From contig OW285197.1 in the NCBI GenBank assembly GCA_935421135.1, forward strand, positions 1,863,068 to 1,927,067: DNA of 64,000 bases. The letters run 5' to 3'. This DNA comes from Bugulina stolonifera (Eukaryota > Bryozoa > Gymnolaemata > Cheilostomatida > Bugulidae). The notes beneath the pieces were generated by a model. The model worked only from the letters and a program-made list of their open reading frames with translations. It was not told the origin of the DNA and did no database searches. The translations under genes and the position numbers were made by a program. This document shows, one piece after another, positions 11,990 to 37,353 of this stretch (position 1 is the first letter of the stretch; every line of letters starts with the position of its first letter).

Positions 11990-11995
11990 TACATG

Positions 11996-12535
11996 AGTAG
12001 TATAGTCAGTGCAGATCTACACAGACGCCCGGCCATTTCCGCGTCGTATTAGCCCTAGATCCAAAAACTCCCCGGGCGGACGACCACCCCACCCGTCCTC
12101 TCGCCCCCTCCTCTCCCCTAAACCTCACTCTATGTGCAAAGCCCTAGACCCTACTCCCCCCATCGCGGGTGGGGTTTCAAAAACCTCATCGGCTGTTCCG
12201 CGGAACCCAGTCTAAAGATCAAACCCCGCGCCCCGCCCTCGCCCCGTCCCACGGCTCGGGCGAGGGGGCGCGCGTACGCGCGCGCCCCCCGCCCCGCGAA
12301 CCCCACCCGTCCTCCCTCCATCCGTCCCCGCCCCTCCCCACCCCTCCCCTCCGCCTCGCCCTCCGCCTCGCGGCGGTTCTCGTTTGCGAGTCCAGCCGTG
12401 GCCCCACGCCGCCCTCCCCCCGCCCATCCCCCGCCCCTCCCCCGCCCTCCCGCCCCAACGACCCGTCGCGGCCCTCGCGGGCGGACCGTCGGCTGGAGTA
12501 GGGTGAAGCGAAGGAAAATACGGGTTAGAGTAATG
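11996..12535. repeat. Left terminal inverted repeat of copy 1
   Basis: Matches the reverse complement of 20741-21292 from AGTAGTATAG to GGGTTAGAGT, with scattered differences and small indels. It is very GC-rich against an AT-rich host. The inner part is C-rich on the plus strand, with many runs of four or more C. Reading frames through it are artefacts of composition. Confidence 0.92.
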
Positions 12536-12559
12536 GTGTGTGATGTATTCTAGAATAGA

Positions 12560-12835
12560 TGATATACGACCATGAAAAATATGCGTTTGTTTTATAATTT
12601 TCAATACGTTTGAGAGTAATAATATAAAATTAAGTGATAAAAAACTTGATACACGACTATGAAAAATATGAGTAAGGGTAATGATACACGAGTTTGTTTT
12701 AATTTTCAATACGTTTGAGAGTAATAATATAAAATCAATCGATAAAAACCGATATACGACTATGAAGAATATGAGTAAGGCTAACGATACACGAGTTTGA
12801 GAGTAATAATATAAAATCAATTGATAAGTAGACAC
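12560..12835. repeat. AT-rich subterminal repeats of copy 1
   Basis: Three imperfect copies of a unit ending TACGTTTGAGAGTAATAATATAAAAT (written in parts: TACGTTTGAGAG, TAATAATATAAAAT) begin near 12595, 12703 and 12795. They lie between the OB-like gene stop and the TIR. An equivalent array sits at the same place in copy 2 (31880-32215). Confidence 0.8.
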
Positions 12836-12865
12836 AAATGAGTGTGAATGACAAAAGTTTTTGCC

Positions 12866-14186
12866 TCAAAACTGTGCAGTGGCGGGGAGGAGACGCTCGC
12901 CGAGGATGGAGTCTAGAACGGAGCAATCGTAGAATGTTCTCCCGCTCTTGGAAGTCTTCTGTCCCTTGTACACCATCACGGAGGGGAGGAGGTCTTTCAT
13001 CGAAACTGCCAGACGTCCCGGAAGGAAGACCTCTCCCTTTTTTTCTTCGTTTCCAATCCGACACTCGTAGGTGGCAATGGAGTTGCTCGCATTATCACCA
13101 TCACCGCATCTTGGGACGTATGTTGGTCGGAGCGCGGTCACCACCAGCACAGAACCAACGGGGAATGAAGATAGCGTTTGCACTCGAAAAAATTCTTCCA
13201 ACTGGGCCAAGGTCTTCTTTCTCAAGTCACCGGCCAGCTTTTTCATGGCTGCTCCTGGCAGGGAGCACACGCTCTCGATACGATTGAATGTGTTTTGTCC
13301 TTTAGCGGTCTCCTGCTGTCCCAAGTACACCATGATCCTAGGTGGAAGGGTAAGGTCCTTTAGCTCCTCTTCTTTGACATCCGCTAGCTTGGGCATGGCG
13401 TGACGAATGTTGGTGTGAAAGCTGATGCAATGTCTCATCCCCTTGTCATCCACATAGCTTGCCCTGGCTAAGAATGCTTTTCCGAATGCCGTTTCAACCA
13501 CCGAACCTCCACTCACTTCTAGCACAGTTCCTGGCTCTAGCTCTGACAGCTTCACCGTTGTCTGCAGAGAGCTCCTCTTCTCCGCTTCCATGCTCCTACA
13601 ATAACGAAAGTGGTGTATATAGTTCCGACAAAGCGGTTAAACGGGAGAAAGATAGTACGATAATTTATAGATATACGAATAGGGCTACTTACATTAGGCT
13701 TGCCGCTACTGCACGAGCTTTCTCCAGGCTTAGTCCCCCGCTCTTTTTCTTCCCCTTGCAAGAGGACTTGGTAGCTTTTTTTCCCTTCGTTGTCTCACCA
13801 CCATCCATTTCTTCCGTAGCCGTATCGGCTCCGTGGCCATCATCATCATCATCATCATCTGATATTACAATCGTCTGGGGTTTCTTCTTTTTCTTAGCAC
13901 AGATTTCATCTCCTTTTGGGTTCTTCCTCTTCTTGGTTGTTGCGGTCTCACCCCTATCCGAGGCCCGCTCCGGAGAGGACGGAGAGTCCACCATGTTAGA
14001 AAGATCCTTTCGAGCGAGACTCCCCACTCCTATTATTTTCCCCTTCTTCCGTGCCTCTTTTAACGCATCCACCTCTTCTTTCCTCTTCTGACTGCACTCT
14101 TCTTCTTCAATAATTCCATCCATTTGTGAGTCCGTTAAGCCCGCAAATAACTCTTCTTGGTTTTGGACTATGTTGTCAGTATCCAT
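12866..14186 (-). CDS. Two-domain OB-like, putative single-strand DNA-binding protein of copy 1 (407 aa)
   Basis: Two exons on the minus strand: 13693-14186 and 12866-13595, joined in phase across a 97-bp GT-AG intron. The N-terminal half is charged and disordered, with an acidic patch (VISDDDDDDDGHG) between basic clusters (KKRKNPKG, CAKKKKKPQ) that look like nuclear signals. The C-terminal half holds two copies of a domain of about 100 residues. Each has a GTVLEV/GSVLVV strand and ends alike (LPPRIMVYLGQQETAKGQ and LLPSVMVYKGQKTSKSGR). The beta-rich pattern suggests tandem OB folds, as in single-strand DNA-binding proteins. A PolB partner would need such a protein, but I do not recognise the family and the function is inference. 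It is transcribed divergently from PolB. Confidence 0.72.
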
Positions 14187-14314
14187 CGATAATGTACTAT
14201 TGTAGTAGTGTAGCTGTACAGTAGTTATGTGCTGAACTTTGAATACTGAGACTGTGATCCCACTCTCCCTTTATACAACTGCTCATTTCTTGACTCCTCC
14301 TTTCTTTTTATCCA

Positions 14315-14752
14315 ATCCCAATGTGACCCGAAGCTTCCCGATGCATCCCGATGCGATTCCGAAGCTTCCCGATGCTTCCCGATGCTTCCCGATGCGTCCC
14401 GATGCGATTCCGAAGCTTCCCGATGCTTCCCGATGCGTCCCGATGCGATTCCGAAGCTTCCCGATGCTTCCCGATGCATCCCGATGTGATTCCGAAGCTT
14501 CCCGATGCATCCCGATGCGTCCCGATGTGAATTGACACATCGGGACGCATCGGGATGCATCGGGAGGCATCGGGAAGCCTCGGAATCGCATCGGGATGCA
14601 TCGGGAAGCATCGGGAAGCTTCGGAATCGCATCGGGACGCATCGGGAAGCATCGGGAAGCTTCGGAATCGCATCGGGACGCATCGGGAAGCATCGGGAAG
14701 CTTCGGAATCGCATCGGGATGCATCGGGAAGCTTCGGATTCACATCGGGGTG
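14315..14752. repeat. Long inverted repeat of 10-bp units between the two genes of copy 1
   Basis: The left arm (about 14325-14529) is a run of decamers such as CCCGATGCTT and CCCGATGCGT, broken at intervals by ATTCCGAAGCTT. The right arm (14536-14745) is its inverse, with the centre at about 14532. The arms pair almost end to end, giving a hairpin or cruciform with a stem of about 200 bp. It lies in the only intergenic space between divergent genes, so it could be a promoter, a replication origin or both. Peptide frames across it are by-products of the repeat. Confidence 0.92.
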
Positions 14753-14888
14753 GTATTGCCAAGGGTGGGGGGGATGGTTAGACTCCGCCCACTGAATACT
14801 ACTATTTAAGGTATGAGTTTCTCACTCTAGCAGCATGAACAATCAGCCTCTAGTCAACAGAGTGAGAGTAAACAGAGACAGCTACCTA

Positions 14889-15310
14889 CTAGTCAGTACC
14901 TGAACAGAGATGTCAACAAGTAGAACATAAGGTTAGTGTTAAATGGAGTAATTGGCAGCAATTGTGAAGTGTTTATTGTATAAAATACTATCAAGCTAAA
15001 AAATAACTCACTAGTCAGTACCTGATCAGAGATGTCAACAAGTAGAACATAAGGTTAGTGTTAAATGGAGTAATTGGCAGCAATTGTGAAGTGTTTATTG
15101 TATAAAATACTATCAAGCTAAAAAATAACTCGCACCCTACTACTATATATTTTTATAGGGAGACTAAACAGAAACGCCTACCTTCTAGCCAGCGCATGAT
15201 CAGCGGAGATGTCAACAAGTGAAAAAGGTTAGTGCTAAATGAGGCATTTGGTAGCAATTGTGGATTGTTTATTGTTTATGTAGTGTGAAGTAAAAGAATA
15301 ATAACTTACA
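14889..15310 (+). promoter_or_regulatory. Three tandem 5' exon/intron modules upstream of PolB (copy 1)
   Basis: A unit of about 122 bp containing GAGATGTCAACAAGT and a donor AAGGTTAGTG occurs at about 14890 and 15012, with a diverged third copy at about 15188. In the first two, the ATG opens a six-codon frame that stops (TAA) just before the donor. Only the third ATG (15209) runs open into its donor and splices in frame into PolB. An internal acceptor (TTTTTATAG, about 15160) separates the second and third units. The arrangement suggests upstream ORFs or alternative first exons controlling polymerase expression. Confidence 0.7.
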
Positions 15311-18300
15311 CCCTACCATTTTGTTTTTTTTTCTTTTTATAGGGGGAGAGACCTCTCGTCAGGTCGAGCACACCTGTCAACTATGCGGTCTGGTTCTCAG
15401 AACAGCGTTTTCTCTAGACAGGCACATGAAGAGAATGCATGCACAGGCTCACCCGCACAAGTGTCCCGTTTGCGGTGGATGTTTTGATGGGAGGAGAAAG
15501 CTAGGTCATCACATGAGACGATTTCATAGCGAGGGTAAGGTGGAAAAAGATGAGGGAGGTGCGGAGAGGTTTGATGATGTTTTCTGGTCTAAACCACCAA
15601 CAGCTGAAGAGGGGGATGAGATGGGGGTGCTACTAGCCCGCTATTGGAGCTCCATCAGGTCCGCAATACACTCTCGTCCCGTGGAAGATATTCTCAACGT
15701 TCGAGTGTGGAGAGGGGAAGGTGAAGACGAAGGAGATGAAGAGGTGTGGACTAAGTTGAGAGCAATGTGGAAGAGAGTGCCTTGTACTGTGAAGATTAAC
15801 TGTAGCGCTGGAGTCATCCTCGAGCATAAGACCAGTGGAGAGTTGCGCTACTTTCACTCATCAAGCAACAATGCCGCATTCTTCCCCAAACCAAGACTGA
15901 TCAGAACAGAGAATGAGATGAGAGAGTTTTGCGAATCTGTGCAGGAGCTCGACTTGAGAGAGAGGTCAGCACAAAGGAGACCGAATACCGCTTGGGCTTT
16001 ACGTCACATTGCGAATCTGACATTCTACATCTATAAACTCCTAGAGATTGGCAAGGTGGGTGGTGTAGTGAGCAAACTCCCAGACTACATACTTAACAAC
16101 CGACACGTGATAGCACTAGACGTAGACTTTTGGGCTAGAGGAGGTGCGCGTCCCTACTCAGACAACTTGTGTTTCTTTAGATGCTTGGCCATGATGTATG
16201 ACTGTAACTGCGACCAAAAGAAGGGATGTCGTTGCCGTCGCCCCTCTCACACCACAACACATCGCTTGTTTAAGCAATACATGAGACAAACTAAATCTTC
16301 TTCTCCGCCCTCATCAACTTTGTCAGACTTTCCCGGGGTGGGCGCGAGTGATCTGCTGGTCTTGGAAGATCATTTTGACATATCTATAATAGTCTTCTGC
16401 CTAACTGATGAGGGGGTAGCTCCGATAGTTTGGTCATCTGGGGCACGAAACAAAGCCCGTACACTCTTTGTCAACATGTACGAAAAACACTTCAGCTGGA
16501 TAAAGAATGTCGATTCGTTTGCCAGATGTTTCACCTGCAAGTTGTGCGATGGCGCTTTCACACGTTTGTCCAGCCTACGGCGACATAAGTGCTCGCCAGA
16601 GGAAGCATCGGTGTTTGTTTTCCCTGGTGGAACGTTTGGACCCCCGCCAACCATATTCACAAAACTCAAGCGAGTGGCGGGAATAGAGGTGGTGAACCCC
16701 GACCTCTTATACTACCCCTACTATATCACCTATGATATTGAATGCTTCATGCCAAAAGACAACCTACAAACTAACACCTCCACAATGACTTTTAGTGCAA
16801 GACACGAGTTACTGAGCATATCTGTATGTTCTAACGTCCCGGGGTTTGAGCGGGCCAAGTGTTTTGTGAGGAGTGTCGACAGCAAGGATGGAACGAAGTG
16901 CATTCGTCAATTCGTCCAATACATAGCAAAGATTGCTGACGTGGCAGGAGATTTGTTCGGAGAAAGATTCCGGGATGTACGCAAGCGACTCTCTACTTTC
17001 CTTGCGGATCGGGCGGATAGAGAAGAAGCCTTTGCTGACGAAAAGTTCTCTAACGTCTCGACTTACAGGGTGAAGTCCGGTCTCTCCGGATTAGAAAGAG
17101 AGTTAGAACAGCACATCTCCAGCGTTCCGGTGGTTGGTTTCAACTCACAAAAGTATGACCTAAATATACTAAAGGGACCTTTGCTTCGCTCTCTACAAGA
17201 GGAGGAGGGAGAAGATTTTGTCTTCATCGTTAAGCGTGTTAACAGTATGTCCTGCGTGGAGAGTAGACGTTTTAGGTTCCTTGACATATGCAACTTTATC
17301 GCACCGGGCTTCAACTACTCCAAATACTTGAAGGCATTTGGTGTGTCAGAGAGTAAGGGATTCTTTCCTTACGACTGGGTAGATTCCCTGAGAAGGTTGG
17401 ATTATTATGGACTCCCTCCCCGAGAGAGTTTTTTCAACTCGCTGACTCAGCAAGAATTGAGCGAGCAAGATTATCACCACTGTCAGGTCGTGTGGGTAAG
17501 AGAGAACATGGAAACGTTCAGGGATTTTCTCATCTGGTACAACAACCTCGATGTGGCCCCATTCATCGAGGCCATTGCACGTCAGAGCTCTATCTATCGA
17601 CAAAAGGGTATTGACATGTTGAAATCCGCAATCTCGCTTCCAGGCTTGGCTATCAGATGGTTGTTTATGGAGGTGGAGGCCCGACCTTATGGCTACTCTC
17701 CTCCACAAGCCGCTCTTCCGCTGCATAGGTTAAGGTCTCTCCGAGACGAACTTTGCAACTCGCAACCCATATGTCTGTTCGATGAGGAGAGCAAAAGTCT
17801 GTACCATACTCTTCGTGATAACCTCGTGGGAGGGCCGAGCATTATCTTTCACAGACATCATGAAGTTGGAGTGACCTCTATTCGAGAGAAGATGTATGGC
17901 ACATCCGCAAAACCCTGTAGGTCCATTCTGGGAGTTGATGCCAATGCCCTCTACCTATACTGTATGATGGGGAATATGCCTACGGGTTATCCCAGGCGGA
18001 GGCTAGAGAGCCGAGGCTTTGCTCTAGAACCTATTAAAAAGTTCAGCAAAGTGGCGCATGGTTGGTTGGAGTTCCAATCGTGGAAGAGAGGAGAGGTCAT
18101 CCTTCACCAACAGAATGGAGGAGAAATGAGGATAGGCTGTCACAACCTACCGGTGGATGGTTATAGCGAACAGAGTCGGACGGTGTACCAATTCCACGGT
18201 TGCTACTGGCATGGGCACGAGTGCGAGCTAGGAGGGAACGGGAAAGGTGTCAGAAACATGACGAATGAAGAGCTCCGGGTGGACACTGCGAGGAAAGAAG

Positions 18301-19870
18301 ATTACATCAAGGCTCTAGGCTATAAGCTCATCACCACTCGGGAGTGTGAGTGGGAAGCGCGAGTTCGTTCGGATGTAGAAGTTAGGACATTTCTCGCCAT
18401 CTTCTTTTCTTCTCTCTATCCGGAGAGGGGTTACGTCAACCTCGATAAGATAATCAATAACATTCGTAGTGGAGAGTACTATGGTTTAGTGGAGTGTGAC
18501 ATTTCCGTACCCGAAGAGCTAAAAGCGAAGTTCTCTGAGATGGCACCTATTTTCAAGAATGTAAACGTGGGAAGAGAACATCTTAGCGAACACATGCGCG
18601 CTTTTGCCGAACAGAACGGATTCTTGAAGAGACCTCAGCGAATGCTCGTAGGGAGTCTTTTTGGCGAGCGAATCACACTACTCTCCGATCTGGCTAGATG
18701 GTATCTAGATCAAGGTTTGATAATTACCAGGATCTATCAGTTTGTTCACTTTATCCCACGAGCCTTCTACAAAGACTTTGGATCTTCGGTCTCAGACGCA
18801 AGAAGAGGTGGGGATGTGAACCCCGACCTGGCCCTCTTGGCCAGCACCAGCAAGCTTGTTGGGAATTCAGCCTACGGAAAGACTATAACAAATAAAGAGA
18901 AACATAAGACTGTCAAGTATGTGGAGACAGTAGAGGAGGTGGCTGTCAAAGTGAGGAGTAGGCACTTTTCTAGCCTCAACGAAGTTGATGAAAACTACTT
19001 TGAGATAGAGCTTCACAAGAAAAAGGCAAGTGTTGACAATCTTTCTTTTTATTTTGATTCTTGATTTGACGAAACTTTTTCTGAGTGGTAGGGTAAACTC
19101 TCTCTCTCTCTTTCTTTCTTTTAGATTCGAATGGATGTTCCATCCGTCGTAGGATTCGTTATCCTCCAGAGAGCCAAGTTGAGAATGCTAGAATTCTACT
19201 ACGACTTTATGGATAGGTAAGTAGAACTAGACTATACAAAGATTTTATCAAATCCTTCTCTATTTATTCTTTGGTGTCAACCCGTTCGTTTTATTTTCAC
19301 AGATTCGTCAGCAGAGAGGACTTTGAGTACGTAGAAATGGACACGGATAGCGCTTACATGGCTCTGAGTGCTCGTAGTATAGATGAGGTCATCCGAAAAG
19401 ATAAAAAAGAAGAGTTCTACAGAGAATATGGTAGATGGTTTCCCAGACCCTTCTGCGATAGGCACAAGGGAGACTTTATCACGACCAAGGTGCTCGGCCA
19501 AGAGTGGGAGATGAGGGAATGTTGTGAGAAGGTGCAACGATACGAAACACGAACCCCCGGCCTGTTTAAGGAGGAGTTTCGGGGGGAGGGGGTCATCGCG
19601 CTCAACTCAAAAACATACTTTTGCTGGTCCGCTGATGGTGATAGCAAGTATAGCAGCAAAGGACTAAACAAAAGAGGAAACGCCCTAACCAAAGAGAAGT
19701 TCCTCTCCGTGCTCAGGACAGGGGAGTCGGTGAGAGGGGACAATCGGGGTTTTATCAGAAGAGGAAACCAAACGTATAGCTACACCCAGCTAAAGACCGG
19801 ACTCGCCTACTTCTATGGTAAGCGGAAGGTTGCAGAAGACGGGGTGAGTACGAGTCCTATAGAATGCTAG
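15209..19870 (+). CDS. polB: Family B DNA polymerase, protein-primed type, of copy 1 (1453 aa, four exons)
   Basis: Exons 15209-15227, 15343-19025, 19125-19216 and 19303-19870 join in phase. Intron 2 is a GC-AG intron (AAG|GCAAGT). Replication polymerase of the element. Order: two C2H2 zinc fingers (18-68); an OTU-like segment with DNLCFFRC (280-287) and KHFSW (His 389); a third zinc finger (405-424); exonuclease motifs YDIEC (about 470), FNSQKYDLN (606) and YNNLDV (739); palm motif A LGVDANALY (Asp 872); a Vsr-endonuclease-like insertion FHGCYWHGHEC to ECEW (957-1010); motif B KLVGNSAYGK (1177); motif C MDTDSAY (1278-1280). The C-terminus EDGVSTSPIEC resembles the usual Polinton PolB end. 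All polymerase and exonuclease residues are present. OTU and Vsr labels rest on motifs only. The terminal protein may be part of the N-terminal region. Confidence 0.9.
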
Positions 19871-20305
19871 TACTGATTTCTCGGAGATGAGACTACTTCA
19901 TTCGATAAATTAGAAAGTAAACGAACAGTGTATCATAACCCTTGTACATATACCCGTATAATTTTTTTCACATTCACTCTCTATTGTAAGGGGTCTCCGT
20001 CCTCAAAACGGAGGGTTTACCGGTTGTAGCCTTAAAACCGAGCAATAAAACACTAGCTAATACATTAAAAACCATTTACCTCTCCAAACCAAAGGTGTAG
20101 ACGGTACTAGCGCAGCTTCCGCTCATACTAACCCCTTATCAGTTCACATTTCTTCTATTGTCTTCATTCGTAGGTGGGGGGTGACATCGCACGCGCACGA
20201 TGCGCTCTCTCCCTATCGGAGTTTGCTACCCGGGGGAAAGTGGACGCGGTGGTCAAAGAAATTGGTGGCGAGTCAACGACATCATCGTAGAGGCGGGTCT
20301 ATTTG

Positions 20306-20339
<34 letters not shown>

Positions 20340-20740
20340 GCGATGAGAAGACAAGCATCCGTCTATCCCGTTTATCTATTTCTATTTCTACCCCTCCGAG
20401 CGATGATGTCGTCGGCTAACCTCCTCGCGAAGTCTACGGTTTGAAGCGCGGAAGGGCCACCGCCTTCACCTTCCCTCGCCGCTCGTCACGGGGACGGGCG
20501 ATTTCCCTAGGGGAGGGTCCGGGGGAAATGAGGGTTAAGGCGCGAGTCTTTCATCGAAGGTCCGGGGGCGCTCGAACGGAGGAGCGCGCGAGTGCGGTGT
20601 CACCCCGACCAGTTCAGTCTCAACAGTCCCCGGCAAAGAAATCATCCGGAAGCACCACCACCACCACTCGGTAAGTTTCTTATAGTAGTATAGTCAGCGT
20701 CGTAAACTCTGCACAGGCACTCCGCACGGGTGTAGCCTAT
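19871..20740 (+). other. Inner segment of copy 1 between PolB stop and right TIR; possible further exons
   Basis: A donor-like GGG|GTGAGT at 19844, inside the last PolB codons, and an acceptor CATTCGTAG at about 20174 would join in phase to about 38 more codons ending TAG. A GAT-repeat (20310-20340) and a donor CTCG|GTAAGT near 20671 follow. Part of this stretch (about 20520-20700) is also recognisable in the decayed third copy (36465-36640, inverted), donor included. Copy 2 has lost most of it. No protein family is recognised. Confidence 0.4.
20687..20702 (+). repeat. Internal copy of the element terminus
   Basis: AGTAGTATAGTCAGCG at about 20686 repeats the first 16 bases of the element with one or two changes, in left-end orientation, just inside the right TIR. 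The equivalent CGCTGACTATACTAC occurs in the third copy at 36467-36481. Confidence 0.7.
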
Positions 20741-21292
20741 CATCACTCTAACCCGTATTTTCCTCCGCTTCACCCTACTCCAGCCGACGGTCCGCCCGCG
20801 AGGGCCGCGACGGGTCGTTGGGGCGGGAGGGCGGGGGAGGGGCGGGGGATGGGCGGGGGGGAGGGCGGCGTGGGGCCACGGCTGGACTCGCAAACGAGAA
20901 CCGCCGCGAGGCGGAGGGCGAGGCGGAGGGGAGGGGTGGGGAGGGGTGGGGAGGGGCGGGGACGGGTGGAGGGAGGACGGGTGGGGTTCGCGGGGCGGGG
21001 GGGCGCGCGCGTACGCGCGCCCCCTCGCCCGAGCCGTGGGACGGGGCGAGGGCGGGGCGCGGGGTTTGATCTTTAGACTGGGTTCCGCGGAACAGCCGAT
21101 GAGGTTTTTGAAACCCCACCCGCGATGGGGGGAGTAGGGTCTAGGGCTTTGCACATAGAGTGAGGTTTAGGGGAGAGGAGGGGGCGAGAGGACGGGTGGG
21201 GTGGTCGTCCGCCCGGGGAGTTTTTGGATCTAGGGCTAATACGACGCGGAAATGGCCGGGCGTCTGTGTAGATCTGCACTGACTATACTACT
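20741..21292. repeat. Right terminal inverted repeat of copy 1
   Basis: Inverse of 11996-12535. G-rich on the plus strand, with runs such as GGGGGAGGGGCGGGGG that could form G-quadruplexes. Ends CTATACTACT at the 6-bp duplication. Confidence 0.92.
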
Positions 21293-21589
21293 TACATGTA
21301 GGTCTTGGTGGTCGGGTGGTATAGCGCTAGTCACTCTGGTCTTGCAGTAATGACGCAAATTATCTGCGAGTTCCGCCAATGACCTGGAGGTTTTTGTCCC
21401 GGAGAAGGTCTTCCCCCTGTGCCATATCGAACTAAAGTAATATCTAGCTCTAGGAGCCCTGGTGGCCCCTCGACTAGCTCCGCTATTAGGCAGCCATGTT
21501 AATGAGTTGTGTTTGGCGCCTCGGATATTATTACAGCAACATTACAATATAAATAATGTGCTTGTCTATTTTAGTAAGTGAAGGATATA

Positions 21590-23145: not shown

Positions 23146-26100
23146 TTAGTAGTCTCTCTCGCATACTGATTTGCGTACAAATGAAGTACAATATACGCTT
23201 CCATAGAGGATAGCACTGTCGGCATATTTAATTTGCATACATGCCTTCTCATGGTTGGAATCAAATATAACACCGCTAGCATAAGACATGTTAACTGGTG
23301 TTCCGTCATTCCACAGCCAAACTCCATCTACTCTGGATGCTCCCACATTTATGCTTTTAAGGTTCCAATCTAAAGAGATGTATGCATAGTAATGTTACTA
23401 CTTAGAAAATAATAAGCTATAGTATATCGAGTGGATTACTATGTTCTATTTGGCCGAGTCCAGAGTCTAATTCATATACATGTACTACATACTACATACA
23501 TACTACACTAAGTAAATCTATGCAGTGAACTCCACATGCATGCACTATGTATGCACATGTCTGTATGTAAATTGCATACTATGACACTGTTATATACACT
23601 TGAAGTAATACAAAATTCAAAATATAGGTATTTTAGTTAGTAAGTTCATATTTTGGGCTTCAAAATGATACGCAACTTGACTTGGTTGAACATGTACAAA
23701 TGGCTGTATTTGAACCCCAAAAACCGTTGAAATATAGTGATTTTGTAAAAGCTCAGGAAATTTTGCCAGGAATTTCCAACTATTCATTGATGTCACTTGT
23801 CTGTTCAGTATGAAAGAGCATCCACATAGTTGAACAAAGAAACAAAGACAACCAATGAGAGAGTGTTAGTTATAAATAGGTCAATTGTTACCATTGTTAC
23901 TGTGGGAGTAATGCTCCTTACAATTATAGTTTAGTTTATTGTACTAGTGCACATGACTAGTTGACCTATTAAAACCAATTGTAAGCAAGCCCATGTTCAT
24001 TGACAAATTTCAGCAAATCATCGGGACAAAAGTACATTAGAATCCCCTTTACACAATAGTAGTTGAAGAATTAAGCTATGTACATGTTGCATGAATACTA
24101 ATATAGACCGGTGATTCATAGTAATTTGCATTAGAGCAATCAGTGTTTGCGCGGCTCATAGAACTAGTAGTCAACGTGTCGCTTGATCGCACTAGTGATA
24201 ACCTGAACAAGTGACGTCACTTATTCACCTATTGTTGAATAGCTGAGCATTTTTGGCAATATATAAACTTTACAGTCTGATTACACTGAAGTAAATAAAG
24301 TAAATATAGTCAATTTGCATATCATCTTGAAGCTAAAAGTGTTTCCTAATTGACTAGAATGGTCAAATCCTCAAAAATTGAATACTTTAAAACACAGAAG
24401 CATGTAGGACTATAGTTTTATGCCTACAGCTTGCTTAGAAGGATAAAAGATGACATGTTTCACATAGAAGGAAAAATGGTTAATGGGTAATGAATACAGA
24501 CAATCAGATGGTAGCAACAAGTTCAAATATATACAAAATAATGCAAGTAGTATTGTCAGCGCAGATCTACACAGACACCCACCCGGTTTTGGTACGTGTT
24601 AGCCCTAGATCCCTAAAATCCCCGGGCAGACTACCACCCCACCCGTCCTCTCGCCCCCTCCCCTAAACCTTACTCTATGTGCAAAGCCCTAGAACCTACC
24701 CCCCGATCGCGGGTGGGGTTTCAAAAACCTCATCGGCTGTTCCGCAGAACCCAGGCTAAAGAGCAAACCCCAAACCCCGCCGCGCTCCTGTCCCACGGCT
24801 CGGGCGAGGGGGCGCGCGCGTACGCGTGTGCTCCCCCGCCCCGCAAACTCCACCCGTCCTCCCCTCCACCCGTCCTCCCCTCCACCCGTCCCCGACCCCC
24901 TCCCCGCCCCGTCCCCTCCTCCTCCCCTCTGCCCCGCCCTCCGTCTCGCGGCGGTCCTCGTTTGAGAGTCCAGCCGTGGCCCCATGCCGCCCTTCCCCCG
25001 CCCTCCCCCACCCTCCCCCACCCTCCCCCACCCACCGTAGACTTCGAGAGGTAGTTCGCCGACAACGTCCTCGCTCGGAGGGGTAGAAATAGATAAATAG
25101 ATGGATGTTCTCTCTTCCTCTTCGTCATCATCATCATCATCATTGTCATCATCGTCATCATCATCCTACAAATAGACCCGTTTGTTTCCCCTTCTGATAA
25201 AACCCCGATTGTCCCCTCTCACCGACTCCCCTGTCCTGAGCACAGAGAGGAACTTCTCTTTGGTTAGGGCGTTTCCTCTTTTGTTTAGTCCTTTGCTGCT
25301 ATACTTGCTATCACCATCAGCGGACCAACAAAAGTATGTTTTTGAGTTGAGCGCGATGACACCCTCCCCCCGAAACTCCTCTTTAAACAGGCCGGGGGTT
25401 CGTGTCTCGTATCGCTGCACCTTCTCACATCATTCCCTCATCTCCCACTCTTGCCCGAGCACCTTAGTCGTGATAAAGTCTCCCTTGTGCTTATCGCAGA
25501 AGGGTCTGGGAAACCATTTACCGTATTCTCTGTAGAACTCTTCTTTTTTATCTTTATCTTTTCGGATGACCTCATCTATACTACGAGCACTCAGGGCCGT
25601 GTAAGCGCTATCCATGTCCATTTCTACGTACTCAAAGTCCTCTCTGCTGACGAATCTGTGAAAATAAAACGGATGGGTCGGAGGGGGTTGACACCAAAGA
25701 ATAAATAGAGAAGGGTTTGATAAAATCTTTGTATAGTCTAGTTCTACTCACCTATCAATAAAGTCGTAGTAGAACTCTAGCATTTTCAACTTGGCTCTCT
25801 GGAGGATGACGAATCCTACGACATATGGAACAGGTGCAGGCTAGTGATGGTGTAGGCTAGTGGTGGTGCAGGCTTGGGAGTGGGAGTGGGAGAGAGAGAG
25901 AGAGTTCACCCTACCACTCAGAATAAGTTTCACCAAATCAAGAGTCAAAGTAAAGAAGATTGTCAACACTTGCCTTTTTCTTGTGAAGCACTATCTCAAA
26001 GTAGTTTTCATCACCTTCGTTGAAACTAGAACTGTGCCTACTCCTCACTTTGGCACCCGCCCCCTCTACTGTCTCTACATACTTGACAGTCTTATGTTTC

Positions 26101-29100
26101 TCCTTATTTGTTATGGTCTTTCCGTAGGCTGAATTCCCAACGAGCTTGCTGGTGCTGGCCAAGAGGGCCAGGTCGGGGTCCAGATCCCCCCCCTCTTCTA
26201 GCGTCTGAGACCGTAGAACCAAAGTCTTTGTAGACAGCTCGTGGAATAAAGTGAACGAACTGATAAATCCTGGTAATTATCAAACCTTGACCTAGATACC
26301 ATCTAGCCAGATCAGTGAGTAGTGTGATTCGCTCGCTAAAAAGACTCCCCACGAGCATTCGCTGAGGTCTCTTCAAGAATCCGTTCTGTTCGGCAAAAGT
26401 GTGCATGTGTTCACTAAGGTGCTTTCTTCTCACGGTTATATTCTTGAAAATAGGTGCCATCTCAGAGAACTTCGCTTTTAGATCTTCGGGTACGGAAATG
26501 TCACACTCCACTAAACCGTAGTACTCTCCACTACGAATGTTATTGATTATCTTATCGAGGTTGATGTGGCCCCTCTCCGGGTAGAGGGAAGAAAAGAAGA
26601 TGGAGAGAAATGCCCTAACCTCTTCATCCGAGCGAACTCGCGTTTCCCACTCACACTCACACTGGTGATGAGCTTATAGCCTAGAGCCTTGATGTATTCT
26701 TCTTTCCTCACAGTGTCCACCCGGAGCTTTTCATTTGTCATGTTTCTGACACCTTTTCCGTTCCCTCCCAGCTCGCACTCGTGTCCATGCCAGTAGCAAC
26801 CGTGGAATTGGTACACCGTCCGACACTGTTCGCTACAACCATCCACCGGTAGGTTGTGACAGCATATCCTCATTTCTCCTCCATTCTGTTGGTGAAGGAT
26901 GACCTCTCCTCTCTTCCACGATTGGAACTCTAACCAACCATGCACCACTTTGCTGAACTTTTTCACAGGTTCTAGAGCAAAGCCTTGGCTCTCTAGTCTC
27001 CGCCTGGGATAACCCGTAGGCATATTCCCCATCATACAGTATAGGTAGAGAGCGTTGGCATCAACTCCCAGAATGGACCTACAGGGTTTTGCGGATGTGC
27101 CATACATCTTCTCTCGAATAGAGGTCACTCCAACCTCATGATGTCTGTGAAAGATAATGCTTGGCCCTCCCACGAAGTTATCGCGAAGAGTATGGTACAG
27201 ACTTTTGCTCTCCTCATCGAACAGACATATGGGTTGCGAGTTGCAAAGTTCGTCTCGGAGAGACATTAACCTATGCAGCGGGGGAGCGGCTTGTGGAGGA
27301 GAGTAGCCGTAAGGTCGGGCCTCCACCTTCATAAACAACCATCTGATAGCCAAGCCTGGAAGCGAGATTGCGGATTTCAACATGTCAATACCCTTTTGTC
27401 GATAGATAGAGCTCTGACGTGCAATGGCCTCGATGAATGGGGCCACATCGAGGTTGTTGTACCAGATGAGAAAATCCCTGAACGTTTCCATGTTCTCTCT
27501 TTCCCACACGAGCTGGCAGTGGTGATAATCTTGCTTGCTCAATTTTTGCTGGGTCAGCGAGTTGAAAGAACTCTCTCGGAGAGGTAGTCCATAATGATCC
27601 AACCTTCTCAGGGAATCTACCCAGTTGTAAGGAAAGAACCCCTTACTCTCTGACACGCCAAACGCCTTCAAGTATTTGGAGTAGTTGAAGCCTGGTGCGA
27701 TAAAGTTGCATATGTCAAAGAACCTAAAACGTCTACTCTCCACGCAGGACACACTGTTTATACGCTTAACGATGAAGACAAAATCTTCTCCCTCCTCCTC
27801 TTGTAGAGAGCGTAGCAAAGGTCCGTTTAGTATATTTAGGTCATACTTTTGTGAGTTGAAGCCAACCACTGGAACGCTGGAGATGTGCTGTTCTAACTCT
27901 CCTTCCAATCCGGAGAGACCGGACTTCACCATGTAAGTCGAGACGTTAGAGAACTTGTCGTCAGCAAAGGCTTCTTCTCTATCCGCCCAATCCGCAAGAA
28001 AGGTAGAGAGTCGCTTGCGGACATCCCGGAATCTTTCTCCGAACAAATCTCCTCCCACGTCAGCAATCTTTGCTATGTATTGGACGAATTGGCGAATGCA
28101 CTTTGTCCCATCCTTGCTGTCGACGCTCCTCACAAAACACCTGGCCTGCTCAAACCCTGGGACGTTAGAACATACAGATCTGCTCAGTAACTCGTGTCTT
28201 GCACTAAAAGTCATCGTGGAGGTGGTAGTTGGTAGATTGTCTTTTATAGTAGGGGTAGTATAAGAGGTCGGGGTTCACCACCTCTATTCCCGCCAATCGC
28301 TTGAGTTTTGTGAATATGGTTGGTGGAAGTCCAAACGTTCCACCAGGGAAAACAAACACCGATGCCTCCTCTGGCGAGCACTTATGTCATCGTAGGCTGG
28401 AGAAGCGTGTGAAAGCGTCATCGCACAGCTTGCAGGTGAAACATCTGGCAAACGAGACAACATTCTTTATCTAGCTGAAGTGTTTTTCGTACATGTTGAC
28501 GAAGAGTTTATGGGCTTTGTTTTGTGCCCCAGACGACCAGACTATCGGAGCTACCCCCTCATCAGTTAGGCGGAAGACTATTATAGATATGTCAAAATGA
28601 TCTTCCAAGGCCAGTAGATCACTCGCGTCCACCCCGGGAAAGTCTGACAAAATTGATGAGGGTGGGGAAGAAGATTTAGAACGTCTCATGTATTGATTAA
28701 ACGAGCGATGTGTTGTGGCGTGAGAGGGGTGACGACAGCAACATCCCTTCTTCTGGTCGCAGTTACAGTCATACATCATGGCCAGACATCTAAAGAAACA
28801 CAAGTTGTCTGAGTAGGAACGCACACCTCCTCTAGCCCAATAGTCCACGCCTAGTGCTAGCACATGTCGGTTGTTAAGTATGTAGTCTGGGAGTTTGCTC
28901 ACTACACCACCCACCTTGCCAATCTCTAGGAGTTTATAGACGTAGGACGTCAGATTTGTGATGTGACGTAGAGTCCAAGCGGTGTTCGGTCTTCTTTGTG
29001 CTGACCTCTCTCTCAAGTCGAGCTCCTGCACGGATTCGCAAAACTCCCTCATCTCATTCTCTGTTCTGATCAGTCTTGGCTTGGGGAAGAATGTGGCATT

Positions 29101-32100
29101 GTTGCTTGATGAGTGAAAGTAGCGCAACTCTCCACTGGTCTTATGCTCGAGGATAACTCCAGCGCTACAGTTAATCTTTACACTACGAGGCACTCTCTTC
29201 CACATCGCTCTCAATTTAGACCACATCTCTTCATTCCCTTCATCTTCACCTTCCCCTCTCCACACTCTAACATTGAGAATGTCTTCTACAGGTTGAGAGT
29301 GTATTGCGGACCTGTTAGAATTCCAATAGCGGGCTAGTAGCACCCCCATCTCATCCCCCTCTTCAGCTGTTGGAGGTTTGGACCAGAAAACATTATCAAA
29401 CTTCTCTGCACCTCCCTCATCTTTCTCCGCCTTGGCCTCGCTATGAAATCGCTTCATGTGATGACCTAGCTTTCTCCTCCCATCAAAACATCCGCCACAA
29501 ACCAGGCACTTGTGCGGGTGAGCCTGTGCATGCATTCTCTTCGTGTGTCTGTCTAGAGAAAACGCTGTTTTGAGAACCAGACCGCATAGTTGACAGGTGT
29601 GCTCACCCTGACGAGAGCTCTCTCCCCCTCTAAAAACACAAAATAGTAGGGTGTAAATTATCTCTTTACCTCATACTACTATAAGCAATAAACAGTCCAC
29701 AATTGCTACCAACTACCTCTTTTAGCACTAACCTTCTTTTGTACTTGTTGACATCTCTGATCAGGTGCTGACTAGTAGGTAGGTGTCTCTGTTTAGTCTC
29801 CCTATGAAAATATAAAGTAGCAGGGTGTAAGTTATTTTTTGCTTGATACCATTATATACAATAAACACTTCACAATTGCTGCCAATTACCCTACTTAGCA
29901 CTAACCTTATGTTCTACTTGTTGACATCTCTGATCAGGTGCTGACTAGTAGGTAGCTGTCTCTGTTTAGTATCACTCTGTTGACTAGAGGCTGATTGTAC
30001 ATACTCCTAGAGTGAAAAACTCCTACCTTAAATGGTAATATTCAGTAGGCGGAGTCTAGCCATTTCTCCGCCCTTTCCAATACCCTCTCCCCCCTCCCCC
30101 CCCCCCCCCGATGCATACCGATGTCAATCCGAAGTCCCCGATGCGTACTGATGTCAAGCCGAAGCCTCCCGATGCACCTCGATGTCAATCCGATGTGTCC
30201 TGATGTGTCCTGATGTGCCCCGATGTGTCCCGATGTGCCCCGATGTGCAACGATGTGTCCCGATGTCACTTGACGCATCGGGACACATCGGGAGACATCG
30301 GGACACATCGGGGCACATCGGGACACATCGGATTGACATCGGGGTGCATCGGGAGGCTTCGGCTTGACATCGGTATGCATCGGGGCACATCGGGATTGGA
30401 TGATAGAAAGGGAGGAGTCAAGGATTGAGCAGTTGTATAAAGGGAGAGTAGGATCACAGTCTCAGCATTCAAAGTTCAGCACATCACTACTATACATCTA
30501 CACTACTACAATAGTACATCATCAATGGATACTGACAACATAGTCCAGAACCAAGAAGAGTTGTTTGCAGGCTTAACAGACTCACAAATGGATGGAATTA
30601 TCGAAGAGGAAGAGTGCAGTCAGAAGAGGAAAGAAGAGGTGGATGCGTTAAAAGAGGCACGGAAGAAGGGGGAAATAATAGGAGTGGGGAGTGTTGCCCG
30701 AATGGATCTTTTTAACGTGGCGGACTCTCCATCCTCCCCGGAGCGGGCCTCGGATAGGGGCGAGACCACAACATCCAAGAAGAGAAAGACCCCAAAAGGA
30801 AAAGAAGTGAAACAAGATGAAATCTGTGCTAAGAAAAAAAGGAAACCTCAAGTCATTGTAATATCCGATGAAGAGGGTGGAGATGATGATGATGATGGAC
30901 ACGCAGCCAATTCGGCTACGGAAGAAGTGGATGGTGGTGAAGTGTCGAAACCAAAGAAAGCTACCAAGTCCCCTTGCAAGGGGTAGAAAAAGCGTGGAGG
31001 ACTAAGCCTGGAGAAAGCTCGTGCGGTGGCAGCGACCCTATTGTAAGTAGACCTATCCCTATATCCATAAAACTCCGTACCATCTTTCTCCCGTTTAACC
31101 GCTTTGTCAGATCTATCTATATACACCACTTTTGTTATTGTAGGAGAATAGGAGCGGAGAAGAGGAGCTCTCTGCAGACAACGGTGAAGTTGTCAGAGCT
31201 AGAGCCAGGAACTGTGCTAGAGGTGAGTGGAGGTTCGGTGGTTGAAACGACATTCGGAAAAGCATTCTTAGCCAGGGCAGGCTACGTGGATGGCAAGGGG
31301 ATGAGACATTGCATCAGCTTCCACACCAACATTCGTCACGCCATGCCCAAGCTTGTAGATGCGAAGGAAGAAGAGCTAAAGAACCGTACCCTTCCACCTA
31401 GGATCATGGTATACTTGGAGCAACAGGAGACCGCTAAAGGACAAAACACATTCAACCGTATCGAGAGCGTGTGCTCCCTGCCAGGAGCAGCCATGAAAAA
31501 GCTGGCCGGTGACTTGAGAAAGAAGACCTTAGCCCAGTTAGAAGAATTTTTTCAGGTGCACATGCTATCTTCGTTCCCCGTTGGTTCTGTGCTGGTGGTG
31601 ACCGCACTTCGGCCCACATACATCCCAAGATGCGGTGATGGTGATAATGCAAACAACTCCATTGCCACCTACGAGTGTCGGATTGGAAATGAAGAAAGGA
31701 AGGGAGAGATCTTCCTTCCGGGACGTCTGGCGATTTCGATGAAAGAGCTCCTCCCCTCCGTGATGGTGTACAAGGGACAGAAGACTTCCAAGAGCGGGAG
31801 AGCATTCTACGATTGTGTCATTCTAGACGCCGTCCTCGGCGACCGTCTCCTCTCCGCCACTGCACAGTCTTGAGGCAATTCATGACACTTTTTCATAGTT
31901 GAATGTATTAGCAATTAAATCGCATTACTTATCAATACTCTCAGTGAATTGTTTATCGCTTGATTTTATATTATTACTCTCAAACGTATTGGATTTTAAA
32001 GCTATTTCATCACGTTTTTTCATAGTTACGCGTATTAGTGATTAAACAGTGTTACGTATCATTCCTCTCACCGAATTTTTTATCGATTGATTTTATATTA

Positions 32101-35010
32101 TTACACTCAAACGTATTGAAATGTAAAACAAACTCATGTATCATTACCCTTACTCATATTTTCCATAGTCGTATATCATTACTCTCGAATACATCGGTAA
32201 TAAACATCATCGCCTATCATTACTCTAACTCGTATTTTCCTTCGGTTCACCGTACTTACCTTTTAACTCGTAGGTCAAAAATTGCGCGCGCCCCCGCTCT
32301 AGCCGACGGCCCGGCCGTGAGGGCAGCGACGGGTCGTTGGGGCGGGAGGGCGGGGAGGGCGGCGTGGGGCCACGGCTGGACTCTCAAACGAGGACCGCCG
32401 CGAGGCGGAGGGCGAGGCGGAGGGGAGGAGGGGACGGGATGGGGAGGGGTGGGGGACGGGTGGAGGGGAGGACGGGTGGGGTTCGAGAAGCGGGGAGCGC
32501 GTGCGTACGCGCGTGCCCCCTCGCCCTAGCCGTGGGACGGGGGCGCGGCGGGGTTTGGGGTTTGCTCTTTAGCCTGGGTTCTGTGGAACAGCCGATGACG
32601 TTTTTGAAACCCCACCCGCGATCGAGAGGGGTAGGTTCTAGGGCTTTGCACATAGAGTGAGGTTTAGGGGAGAGGAGGGGACGACAGGACGGGTGGGGTG
32701 GTAGTCCGCCCGGGGATTGTTGGGATCTAGGGCTAAAACGTACCGAAAATGGGTGGGTGTCTGTGTAGATCTGCGCTGACAATACTACTAATGCATGTAC
32801 TACTGAGGTTAGATAGAAGGGAAAATATGACCAGCCTATAGCAGTAGCCATTAAGATCATTTTATATGAGTCCAATCGTCACTTTTCCTGCTAGCCTGCC
32901 CTGTGTACAGCATTTCAGTAACATTACAAATGCGTACCTGGATTATTGAGAGCCATGTTGATCAGCCAATCAACAGACAATATAGTAGTCAGCATAACCA
33001 GAGTTCCATTCATACTTTCACAGTGAGTCTGGACATCAGAATGCGAGTGTCTGTCATTCACATACAAGAGACATCTCTTACTAACTGGATTTCTACGCCA
33101 ACCTTCCTCTTTACATTGGTCAATTTCTGTAATATAACATTGTAATATTTTGTGGTTTTGGGTTTCACACGGGTGCGGATATTAGCACGAGTGTGGGAAG
33201 CGCTTGGTAGTGGTAATGGGCTGCCAAGATAAACTTCCACACATTGCATAAAGAGTAAACAGTTATGTAAGCTCTTATAGGTATTGTAGAGGACGTAGGC
33301 CGATGCTTGGACTCATTAAAGAGTCAAGGGTCGACGAAGGTCCAATGGTTTATAACCCTAAGAGTGAAGAAAGATTCAATGTTGAAATGGGGACGTAGGC
33401 CAGATGCATAGGCTCATTGAAGATTCAAGGATCGACTAAAGTTCGATGTTTATACTCATCAAAAGTGTGATAAGAGACTTATACGAGTATAAGGACGAGC
33501 TCGGGCGCTAAAGGTCCAGGGAACCAAGGCTGGAGCTGCCTGCCTGAAAGAGTCAGACTGTAGGTTGAGTTAGGGGATGTTGCTTTATTACAGCGCAATC
33601 AACAACTGACTTAGCATAGAAAATGTGCTGGCTTTTATACTATTTGGGTTTCCTGGGTCGGGCGGTACCATAAGGTATCGTTCCCAGAAATTGTGTAACA
33701 AGATGGCTGAAAAGTGCCCAAGGTCCGACCATAAGAAGGTCGGCCATGCACAAAAAGTGCTTACAATCATGTGAAATGAATAATGTGTTAAAATGGCTAA
33801 GATTCAAGACATCGACTATTAATTATAATTGGCAAAAAGACTTAGACTAAAAGTAGACAGTGATGTACTTGACGTAATAACGATACAATAACAGTAAACA
33901 GGCACATAGACATGATTGATTGAATATTGAAGCGCATGAACCAGACAGTTAATTGATAATAATAAACAATCTAGGCGTAATGCATAATAGCTCGGCATGT
34001 AGAATTAGTTATATGTGTGGCAGTCCAGGAGAGACTGGACAGGTATGCTGTAGCACCACAATATATTACATTGTAGTCATCGAAGACAGCGCTTTTCTAG
34101 CATATACCAACATTATTCTTAGGTTATTGAAATGCTGTTGAACATATGAACATTTGTATTAAAATCTTCTGTATCAGATGGTTACATACATGGTTACATA
34201 CGGACCTACCAGACTCCACTAAATTAAATAGTTGATGAGTCATTGCTATAATCAGTTTGTGAACCACTTCAGAGTAATTTAGTAGTTACTTTAGTCAGTA
34301 TTCTGATACTACTATTGTAACAATCACACCATACATCTAGTGTACAGGATTGTAAGATTCTCACCCTGGTCATAGATGTCTACATCATCAGCAACAGTAT
34401 TGACTGTATCAGATCTGTAGATAGACTGATATGGTGAGAGGTTACACAACCTTGATGGAGTGTCAAAGGTGAACGCCTCACAGGCAGCACCTCTCACCAG
34501 ACATCTGACAGCACATCTGTGGGAGTTTTTGGCAACAAATGACTCTGATATTAACATCAGATCTTTTCCTTTCACTCTTTTAAATAACTTTTCTTCTGGT
34601 ACCTGAGTAAAGTCAAATGGAGAAGGTTGCAAATTGCTTGTTATCGAGAATCTCCAAACTTTATAACATTGTTTGTCTACCCAGTGAGTCTAATTAATAG
34701 ATTACAGCTCATGCATTCATGCTGGTTTAACCTGCTTTGAGTTTGTCTCTCTTACCACCAAGTGGTACTGAAACCTGTGATGCTAATGTCTGTATTTAAC
34801 AGTAGATTCATTACTACCTCATACTGTCATCAGGTAAGACTCAAGTCAAAGTTTTGTTAGTAACTTCAAAATACATTATAAACATTTACTTGTATGGAGG
34901 CACCATTAGTTGAACCTACATTATCTATGTCTAAATGAAGAAGAATATGTTACCTGGGAAAGAACCAAGACGCTGACTATACTGAATATGAATAGTATGT
35001 ATAGACGCAT
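23146..35010 (-). CDS. Secreted PAN/apple plus C-type lectin protein (221 aa, four exons)
   Basis: Minus-strand exons 34954-35010, 34365-34602, 32938-33084 and 23146-23369 join in phase (0, 1, 1) to 221 residues. Exon 1 is a signal peptide (MRLYILFIFSIVSVLVLSQ). Exon 2 has a PAN/apple-like core (CAVRCLVRGAACEAFTFD then CNLSPYQ). Exons 3 and 4 split a C-type lectin-like domain: CLLYVNDRHS, HCESMNGTLVML, then VWLWNDGTPVNMS, ACMQI, YCTSF and VCER, which supply the expected cysteines. The calcium-site EPN/QPD and WND motifs are absent, so classical sugar binding is doubtful. It is probably an extracellular recognition or adhesion protein. The last intron contains element copy 2, and intron 2 contains a solo LTR. 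Exon borders are set by consensus splice sites and phase. Confidence 0.78.
24546..25037. repeat. Left terminal inverted repeat of copy 2
   Basis: GC-rich, inverse of the outer part of 32218-32789. It is shorter than its partner because the inner end is joined directly to the PolB-side segment (CACCGTAGACTTCG) by a deletion. Confidence 0.88.
25166..29754 (-). pseudogene. polB: Broken PolB gene of copy 2
   Basis: Aligned with copy 1, the exons are recognisable on the minus strand. These are a start exon at about 29733-29754 (MSTSTKE), zinc fingers and OTU-like segment at 29620-28471, polymerase domain to about 25970, a short exon at about 25751-25830, and the motif C exon at 25640-25166. Lesions: a TAG at 28471 replaces the Trp after KHFS; a 29-bp deletion near 28245 removes the first exonuclease motif and shifts frame; further frameshifts lie near 26640 and 26190; and a 3' deletion replaces the C-terminus. 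Motif C (MDMDSAY) carries Met for Thr. The GC-AG donor is conserved. The protein cannot be active. Confidence 0.88.
29700..29990 (-). promoter_or_regulatory. Two 5' exon/intron modules upstream of PolB in copy 2
   Basis: The minus-strand unit with GAGATGTCAACAAGT and an AAGGTTAGTG donor occurs at 29754 (open into PolB) and at about 29929 (stops after six codons, as in copy 1). The same open-proximal, closed-distal pattern in both copies argues that it is a family trait. Confidence 0.68.
30105..30400. repeat. Inverted repeat of 10-bp units between the genes of copy 2
   Basis: Decamers such as CCGATGTGTC and CCGATGTGCC run to a centre at about 30270 and then invert to GGGACACATC. The position and symmetry are as in copy 1, but the unit sequence differs (GATGTGTCC here, GATGCTTCC there). 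Confidence 0.9.
30525..31873 (+). pseudogene. OB-like protein gene of copy 2, one premature stop
   Basis: Exons 30525-31042 and 31144-31873 align with the copy 1 gene along their whole length, with the same intron position and phase. A TAG at 30984-30986 (Lys codon in copy 1, after PCKG) ends the frame inside the N-terminal half. The second exon with both OB-like repeats remains open, so the loss may be recent. The N-terminal part has the same acidic and Lys-rich blocks. Confidence 0.82.
31880..32215. repeat. AT-rich subterminal repeats of copy 2
   Basis: Repeated TGATTTTATATTATTAC followed by TCAAACGTATTG at about 31960, 32088 and nearby, the inverse of the array at 12560-12835 in copy 1. 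Confidence 0.75.
32218..32789. repeat. Right terminal inverted repeat of copy 2
   Basis: From CATTACTCTAACTCG to CAATACTACT. G-rich on the plus strand. Relative to copy 1 it carries an extra stretch of about 50 bp near 32260-32305. Confidence 0.88.
33285..34060 (-). repeat. Solo LTR inside an intron of the PAN-lectin gene
   Basis: TGTAGAGGACG...TAGCACCACA gives TG...CA ends. The flanks GTAT and ATAT agree at 3 of 4 positions. The minus strand carries a CTGTAATAAAGC poly(A) signal near 33590 and an internal tandem of about 105 bp starting GGACGTAGGCC at about 33290 and 33393. GGTCGGCC/GGTCCGACC blocks link it loosely to the other LTRs. Confidence 0.6.
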
Positions 35011-37350: not shown

Positions 37351-37353
37351 AAG

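What the first reader, a model, noticed from the sequence alone, without database searches (positions are those of the whole stretch)
11996..21292. A Polinton-like element reduced to a DNA polymerase and an OB-like protein
Seen: 9.3 kb, AG-starting TIRs, perfect 6-bp duplication (TACATG), and only two genes, both open in this copy. Known: Polintons/Mavericks have 6-bp duplications, AG termini and protein-primed PolB, but also an RVE integrase, protease, ATPase and capsid genes. Here these are absent and the layout is repeated in copy 2, so the reduction is a family trait and not a local deletion. Inference: a replication-competent satellite that makes its own polymerase and borrows an integrase, or a separate lineage of PolB transposon.
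Basis: partly seen in the sequence, partly recalled or inferred. Interest (0 to 1): 0.92.

Follow-up and report, generated by a model that had tools for sequence, protein, structure and literature searches.

The report
Polymerase half of a split Polinton
In this animal genome a Polinton (a virus-like jumping element) seems to exist as two separately inserted halves with matching ends, one carrying the DNA polymerase and one carrying the integrase and virion-type genes, which would be a new way of organising such an element.

Summary
Copy 1 (11996-21292) has ~545-nt TIRs, AG termini, a perfect TACATG duplication and two genes: a phi29/Polinton-type PolB with a conserved Vsr-type nuclease insert, and an OB-like protein. 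Of six copies read over their length, five have both genes and the sixth is a deletion; none has an ORF left over for an integrase. The tip occurs 317+325 times; three intact copies are 99.9% identical; both genes show purifying selection. The reduced-satellite idea is only half the story. The same genome holds 356+358 tips matching at 29/33 nt (first 18 identical). Four such elements read over their length carry an RVE integrase, an A32-type packaging ATPase and capsid/protease-like ORFs, but no polymerase; 40 of 40 scored integrase copies are >=99% identical. Both types make 6-bp duplications, overlap at no locus checked, and have recombined. Best reading: a two-component (bipartite) Polinton, with polymerase and integrase/packaging on separately integrating segments complementing each other in trans. 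Complementation and joint packaging are inferred, not shown. A canonical 15-kb Polinton here (9-10 shared tip nt) remains a possible integrase donor. Eight library searches listed no bipartite Polinton.

The parts
11990..11995 (.). left target-site duplication TACATG
   Evidence: identical to 21293-21298; 6-bp TSD perfect in 12 of 12 copies checked
11996..12540 (+). left TIR, ~545 nt; tip AGTAGTATAGTCAGTGCA is the presumed integrase site and protein-primed origin
   Evidence: tip compared with partner element and Polinton
12869..13591 (-). OB-like protein, main part (241 aa); presumed ssDNA-binding protein
13692..14186 (-). low-complexity N-terminal part (165 aa), presumed first exon of the OB-like gene (splice inferred by eye)
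   Evidence: 95-96% identical in L041-L043, 79 aa of it in L044
14308..14752 (.). palindromic 10/41-bp minisatellite between the two divergent genes
   Evidence: ~70% similar block in the partner element; exchanged into a young partner copy
15321..19064 (+). PolB long ORF (1247 aa): C2H2 fingers, presumed TP region, vOTU-like domain, exonuclease, palm motifs A and B, Vsr-type nuclease insert (aa ~945-1011). The true start is not settled (the slice in L041 has a stop at its very beginning)
   Evidence: dN/dS 0.17-0.21 between copy 1 and young copies
18153..18353 (+). Vsr-type PD-(D/E)XK insert (VDGY..FHGCYWHGHxC..ECEW) inside PolB
   Evidence: Pfam Vsr in 18 of 31 members at E<=0.1; D946, C961, H964, C968, E1008, C1009, W1011 31 of 31; Foldseek 1vsr probability 1.00, E 0.055
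19124..20289 (+). remaining PolB exons (about 19124-19217, 19304-19838 with motif C DTDS, 20175-20289); splice sites read by eye
   Evidence: third-exon part 98.9% identical in L041-L044
20741..21292 (-). right TIR
21293..21298 (.). right target-site duplication TACATG
24546..32789 (-). copy 2 of the same family, 8244 bp, older (93-94% to the copies L041-L044), PolB interrupted
24540..24545 (.). TSD of copy 2 (AATGCA; other copy 32790-32795)

Best explanation
The element is segment A of a two-component Polinton. A carries the replication module: a PolB of the protein-primed type with presumed terminal-protein, vOTU, exonuclease, polymerase and Vsr-nuclease parts, plus an OB-like protein. A second, separately integrated element B (9.6-10.9 kb) carries an RVE integrase with a chromodomain-like tail, an A32-type packaging ATPase, and capsid- and protease-like ORFs, but no polymerase. 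Proposed cycle: A's PolB primes on the AGTAGT tip shared by both and copies A and B as linear DNA; B's integrase inserts both with 6-bp duplications. B's packaging genes may also encapsidate both. Shown: the split gene content in the copies read, matching tips, equal TSD length, hundreds of tips of each, young copies of each, purifying selection on both gene sets, and DNA exchange between A and B. Inferred: trans-complementation, and above all joint packaging.
For: A: six copies read over their length, five with PolB and OB-like gene, one deletion copy; 317+325 tips at <=1 mismatch; 40 of 40 scored PolB DNA hits >=99%, of 300 candidates. B: the copy at C6 and two more, L064 and L067, which hold all ten queried B genes; no A gene in any of the three; a fourth, L070/L071, has matches to all ten B queries and no PolB. 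B tips 356+358 at <=1 mismatch, control 0; 40 of 40 scored integrase DNA hits >=99%, of 218 candidates. A/B tips identical at 29 of 33 nt, first 18 all, against a 9-10 nt prefix with three Polinton tips; outside the tip only minisatellite and GC-rich TIR stretches match. Separation, on the listed places only: 0 of 40 PolB hits in 38 B pairs, closest PolB-integrase 64 kb; 13 of 15 integrase hits on C1/C2 inside 49 B pairs, 0 of 18 PolB hits; 0 of 23 integrase hits on C1-C3 inside 46 A pairs. TSD 6 bp: A 12 of 12, coding B 4 of 4. dN/dS: PolB 0.17-0.21, OB 0.22-0.31, INT 0-0.10, MCP-like 0.09-0.28 (near-identical PolB pairs uninformative). Recombination: 1.4-kb A block, 91.7%, in a young B copy.
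Against: No replication, integration or packaging assay; no extrachromosomal form seen. A canonical Polinton in the same genome (copies 97.3-99.5% identical) shares 9-10 tip nt and could integrate A. The tip variant of window copy 2 was not found in B context (0), so tip co-variation is not shown. Among three B copies identity is only 93.5-95.8%, L064's integrase ORF is broken, and the first B gene is interrupted in the young copy. Capsid names for B rest on size and order only: Pfam found nothing for the MCP- and mCP-like ORFs, a PDB sequence search nothing significant for the MCP-like one, and the protease matches Peptidase_C5 only weakly (0.057, 0.098). B-tip insertions are not all coding: two of 14.7 kb have no B genes, and pairs of 16.8, 17.2 and 20.1 kb were not read. 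The young B form (10.6-10.9 kb) is larger than A (9.65 kb).
Confidence: 0.68

Rival explanations
1. A is a replication-competent satellite that inserts with the integrase of the canonical 15-kb Polinton; B is an unrelated polymerase-less derivative using the same host or Polinton machinery.
For: Canonical Polinton present, RVE integrase and A32 ATPase open at the locus read, copies 97.3-99.5% identical over 3.5 kb, first 9-10 tip nt and 6-bp TSD shared with A.
Against: A shares 18 identical (29 of 33) tip nt with B but only a 9-10 nt prefix with three Polinton tips; A has exchanged DNA with B, while blastn found no A-Polinton similarity in the three pieces tested. A and B tips are in the hundreds; A32 hits that look canonical number six.
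Confidence: 0.18
2. A inserts with its own Vsr-type nuclease built into PolB and needs no RVE integrase: a separate lineage of PolB-endonuclease transposon.
For: The nuclease domain's key residues are invariant in 31 of 31 aligned sequences; Foldseek 1vsr probability 1.00; relatives with this PolB in Branchiostoma and Littorina.
Against: 6-bp duplications and AGTAGTATA ends are the same as for two RVE-integrase elements in this genome, which a Vsr-type nuclease would not be expected to produce (inference). The domain could serve replication or be a domesticated homing-type insert.
Confidence: 0.09
3. A and B are internal-deletion derivatives of one full Polinton that is absent from this assembly or was not read.
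For: Matching tips and related minisatellite; 16.8-, 17.2- and 20.1-kb B-tip pairs were not read; capsid-type genes normally sit with PolB (recalled).
Against: TIRs of A and B are otherwise dissimilar, so they are not recent deletions of one element; none of the 40 scored PolB hits lies in 38 listed B pairs, nor 18 on C1/C2 in 49; both gene sets show purifying selection.
Confidence: 0.05

Closest known systems
Polintons / Mavericks (Polintoviricetes)
   Different: Gene set divided over two separately integrating elements; in the copies read neither half holds both polymerase and integrase
Adintoviruses
   Same: PolB with OTU-like domain and integrase with C-terminal chromodomain (PMC11071296, section 16 read); B integrase has a Chromo match at 4.7e-5, below Pfam's cut-off
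   Different: Defined there by PolB and hexon, with integrase also encoded; here polymerase and integrase are on separate elements
Bidnaviruses
   Same: Polinton-type pPolB in viruses some of which have divided genomes, up to twelve segments (PMC11071296 passage; PMC11071308 passages)
   Different: ssDNA viruses with parvovirus-type NS1 and capsid (PMC11071296 passage); no RVE integrase recalled
Polinton-like viruses (PLVs) without PolB
   Same: Element B, like most PLVs, lacks pPolB (PMC11071308 passage)
   Different: PLVs encode other replication proteins and mostly lack RVE-INT (same passage); B has RVE-INT and no replication protein was recognised
Transposon satellites using a helper's integrase (recalled)
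   Same: A lacks an integrase and shares tips with integrase-bearing elements
   Different: A supplies the polymerase its proposed partner lacks, so help would be mutual

Membership tests
Polinton/Maverick | 6-bp target-site duplication | tested here: met
   12 of 12 A copies; 4 of 4 coding B copies; canonical Polinton at the 3 loci where both ends were found (at the other 3 of 6 loci only one end was found)
Polinton/Maverick | Long TIRs with AG terminus | tested here: met
   canonical Polinton in the same genome has the same first 9-10 nt
Polinton/Maverick | PolB of the protein-primed type | tested here: met
Polinton/Maverick | TP and vOTU domains in PolB | tested here: inconclusive
   viral OTU chains with Foldseek probability up to 0.99 but E 0.06 or more; C284 and H390 31 of 31, their catalytic role inferred; TP part not tested by itself
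Polinton/Maverick | RVE integrase in the element | tested here: not met
   no integrase domain in copy 1's ORFs and no spare ORF in the other copies; present on the separate element B (PF00665 1.1e-11)
Polinton/Maverick | Packaging ATPase, capsid and protease genes in the element | tested here: not met
   not among A's ORFs; B has A32 ATPase (1.2e-6) and capsid/protease-like ORFs
Bipartite/multipartite virus | Complementary genes on separate nucleic acids with common ends | tested here: met
   for the copies read and places listed
Bipartite/multipartite virus | Both segments packaged and needed together | not testable with these tools
   needs particles, reads or genetics
Vsr endonuclease family | Vsr Zn ligands and catalytic residues (assignments recalled) | tested here: met
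   corresponding D946, H964, C961, C968, C1009 31 of 31, H966 30 of 31; Pfam 18 of 31 at E<=0.1, copy 1 below the curated cut-off; activity untested

The most novel reading that the evidence does not exclude
A living bipartite, chromosomally integrating DNA virus of an animal: segment A (polymerase) and segment B (integrase, capsid, packaging) are replicated from a common protein-primed origin, packaged separately in the same capsid type and re-integrated, and each persists by complementation.
Probability: 0.35. Interest if true: 0.95.

Novelty: new variant of a known kind. Interest (0 to 1): 0.86.

Why it matters
Polintons are regarded as self-sufficient virus-transposons. A split into polymerase and integrase/packaging segments, each with hundreds of tips in one genome, would show that their replication and integration modules can be uncoupled and kept together by shared ends. 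It would give a chromosomal record of how a multipartite DNA virus arises, testable by asking which integrase and polymerase act on which ends.

Tried and rejected
Retroelement integrases: PF00665 in the own genome gave 150 scored hits; the two best look Copia-type (ORFs read; label recalled), so this search could not see Polinton integrases; I went through PF04665 instead.

IMG/VR scans with the PolB alignment, the B MCP-like ORF and the B integrase found no relatives, so no outside copy of the pair could be compared. OB-protein homologues: two at first, one more by profile.

Co-variation of tips: the T9/C15 variant of window copy 2 does not occur in B context. Two 14.7-kb B-tip elements looked like possible full Polintons but hold minisatellites and, in one, a LINE-like ORF (B and canonical queries, ORFs, A queries).

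Script fault: (and in failed) the 'window' sequence could be an alignment row, so their comparisons with segment A are void; one search repeated them with the right file. The B and canonical-Polinton rows do not use that variable.

The PF03175 search of the genome did not complete. VIA listed no Vsr or OTU chains for PolB; this is not evidence of absence. Rows dropped before counts: 8 unpaired tips of 100 listed, 24 of 100, 2 of 100. Of 15 integrase hits on C1/C2, the two outside B pairs are one beside a single listed tip (C1:16375077) and one beyond the listed range (C2:21428263).
Full report

THE FAMILY. The A tip (31 nt) occurs 317+325 times with at most one mismatch, control 0. With three mismatches it occurs 755+772 times, but that count includes the partner's tip. 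From the 100 listed tips I formed 46 pairs: median 9649 bp, 27 between 9600 and 9730, 13 under 9 kb, largest 11134. Four further copies were read: L041-L043 (9649, 9636, 9637 bp) with PolB and the OB-like gene, and L044 (7662 bp), a deletion copy with PolB pieces and part of ORF165 but no OB match. Their ORF lists leave no ORF for an integrase; they were not searched with integrase queries. L041-L043 are 99.92-99.97% identical over 3.7 kb, copy 1 is 97.5-97.6% to them and copy 2 is 93%. All 40 scored PolB DNA hits are >=99% (of 300 candidates). The TSD is a perfect 6 bp in 12 of 12 copies. Between copy 1 and L041-L043 PolB has 50-52 synonymous and 33-39 non-synonymous differences, dN/dS 0.17-0.21; comparisons among the near-identical copies are uninformative (3 to 14 differences, ratio near one or undefined).

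THE PARTNER. A search for A32 packaging ATPases gave ten loci. Six belong, by score and open frame, to a canonical 15-kb Polinton (PolB 1381 aa, RVE integrase 310 aa, A32 ATPase; genes read at one locus). Its tips are AGTAGTATAGACTCG or AGTAGTATA(G/A)AAGTACC; 6-bp TSDs at the three loci where both ends were found. A seventh locus, at C6:13986207-13995814, proved to be the complementary element B: 9608 bp, TIR ~570 nt, TSD AACAAC. Its integrase (PF00665 1.1e-11; Chromo 4.7e-5, under Pfam's cut-off) lies among A32 ATPase and capsid- and protease-like ORFs, all on one strand, with no polymerase recognised. The other three A32 loci were not read. Two more copies (9629 and 9642 bp) hold all ten queried B genes at 86-100% amino-acid identity and no A gene (L064's integrase ORF is broken). 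A fourth, young copy (10704 bp) has matches to all ten B queries, integrase 100%, its first gene interrupted. B tips occur 356+358 times with at most one mismatch, control 0; how many of these are coding is not known. All 40 scored integrase hits are >=99% (of 218 candidates). On C1 and C2, 13 of 15 such hits lie inside B-tip pairs, 12 of them 10.57-11.08 kb and one 17.2 kb.

WHY THE TWO BELONG TOGETHER. A and B tips agree at 29 of 33 positions, including the first 18; three Polinton tips share only the first 9 or 10 with A. Beyond the tip the TIRs differ, apart from GC-rich stretches, and both elements carry a related minisatellite (~70%). Conservation of just the tip is what shared trans-acting enzymes would cause (inference); AGTAGT is a tandem triplet of the kind that adenovirus-type jumping-back priming uses (recalled). 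PolB and integrase copies are separate in the places listed: the closest pair among 40 x 40 hits is 64 kb apart, 0 of 40 PolB hits lie in 38 B pairs, 22 of 23 PolB hits on C1-C3 lie inside A pairs, and 0 of 23 integrase hits on C1-C3 lie in 46 A pairs. A and B have met as DNA: the young B copy has 1.4 kb of A, 91.7% identical, including 84 codons of A's ORF165, where the older copy has its own minisatellite; whether other young copies share it was not tested. B genes are also under purifying selection (INT 0.09-0.10 against C6 and 0 between L067 and L070, MCP-like 0.09-0.28, ATPase 0.27, mCP-like 0.32).

WHAT IS NOT SHOWN. No assay links B's integrase to A's ends or A's polymerase to B's ends. 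The canonical Polinton could supply either. The MCP and mCP names rest on ORF size and order; sequence searches found no relatives (PDB for the MCP-like ORF only). Two B-tip elements of 14.7 kb are without B genes, and B-tip pairs of 16.8, 17.2 and 20.1 kb were not read. Similar size as a sign of joint packaging is only suggestive: the older B form is 9.6 kb like A, but the young one is 10.6-10.9 kb. The T9/C15 tip variant of window copy 2 was not found in B context.

LITERATURE. Eight searches of the library listed no bipartite Polinton and no Vsr-bearing PolB transposon in the rows shown (3 to 15 each); I saw listings and abstract starts only, except for passages of PMC11071308, PMC12721341, PMC6431247 and PMC12220804 and passages plus section 16 of PMC11071296. 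'Bipartite' in PMC12220804 refers to gene networks. Most subscription papers, and Repbase, are not covered.

Noticed in passing
L065+L066 (C8:3738640-3753346) and L068+L069 (C6:17348338-17363069): 14.7-kb elements with B tips but no B genes: minisatellites, in one an 830-aa LINE-like ORF and a 41-aa PolB exon fragment (73%); one has a 6-bp TSD (TTCATG), the other none.
   Followed up: partly
C1:4278024-4293072 (L050, L045, L051): A canonical ~15-kb Polinton with open PolB, RVE integrase and A32 ATPase; five copies 97.3-99.5% identical over 3.5 kb, with at least two TIR-tip subfamilies.
   Followed up: partly
L071:3228-4648: Young integrase-type element carries the intergenic block of the polymerase-type element (91.7%), a recombination between the two.
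   Followed up: yes
L054 (C1:34619763-34620263): A polymerase-type 3' tip ends about 100 bp from a canonical Polinton 5' tip: nested or adjacent insertion.
   Followed up: no
window 37295-38374, 57066-57769, 61004-61909: Long tandem arrays of 52-, 32- and 34-bp units.
   Followed up: no
C3:4199412-4216168, C9:4818626-4838767, C1:26262243-26279407: B-tip pairs of 16.8, 20.1 and 17.2 kb, not read; the last holds an integrase hit.
   Followed up: no
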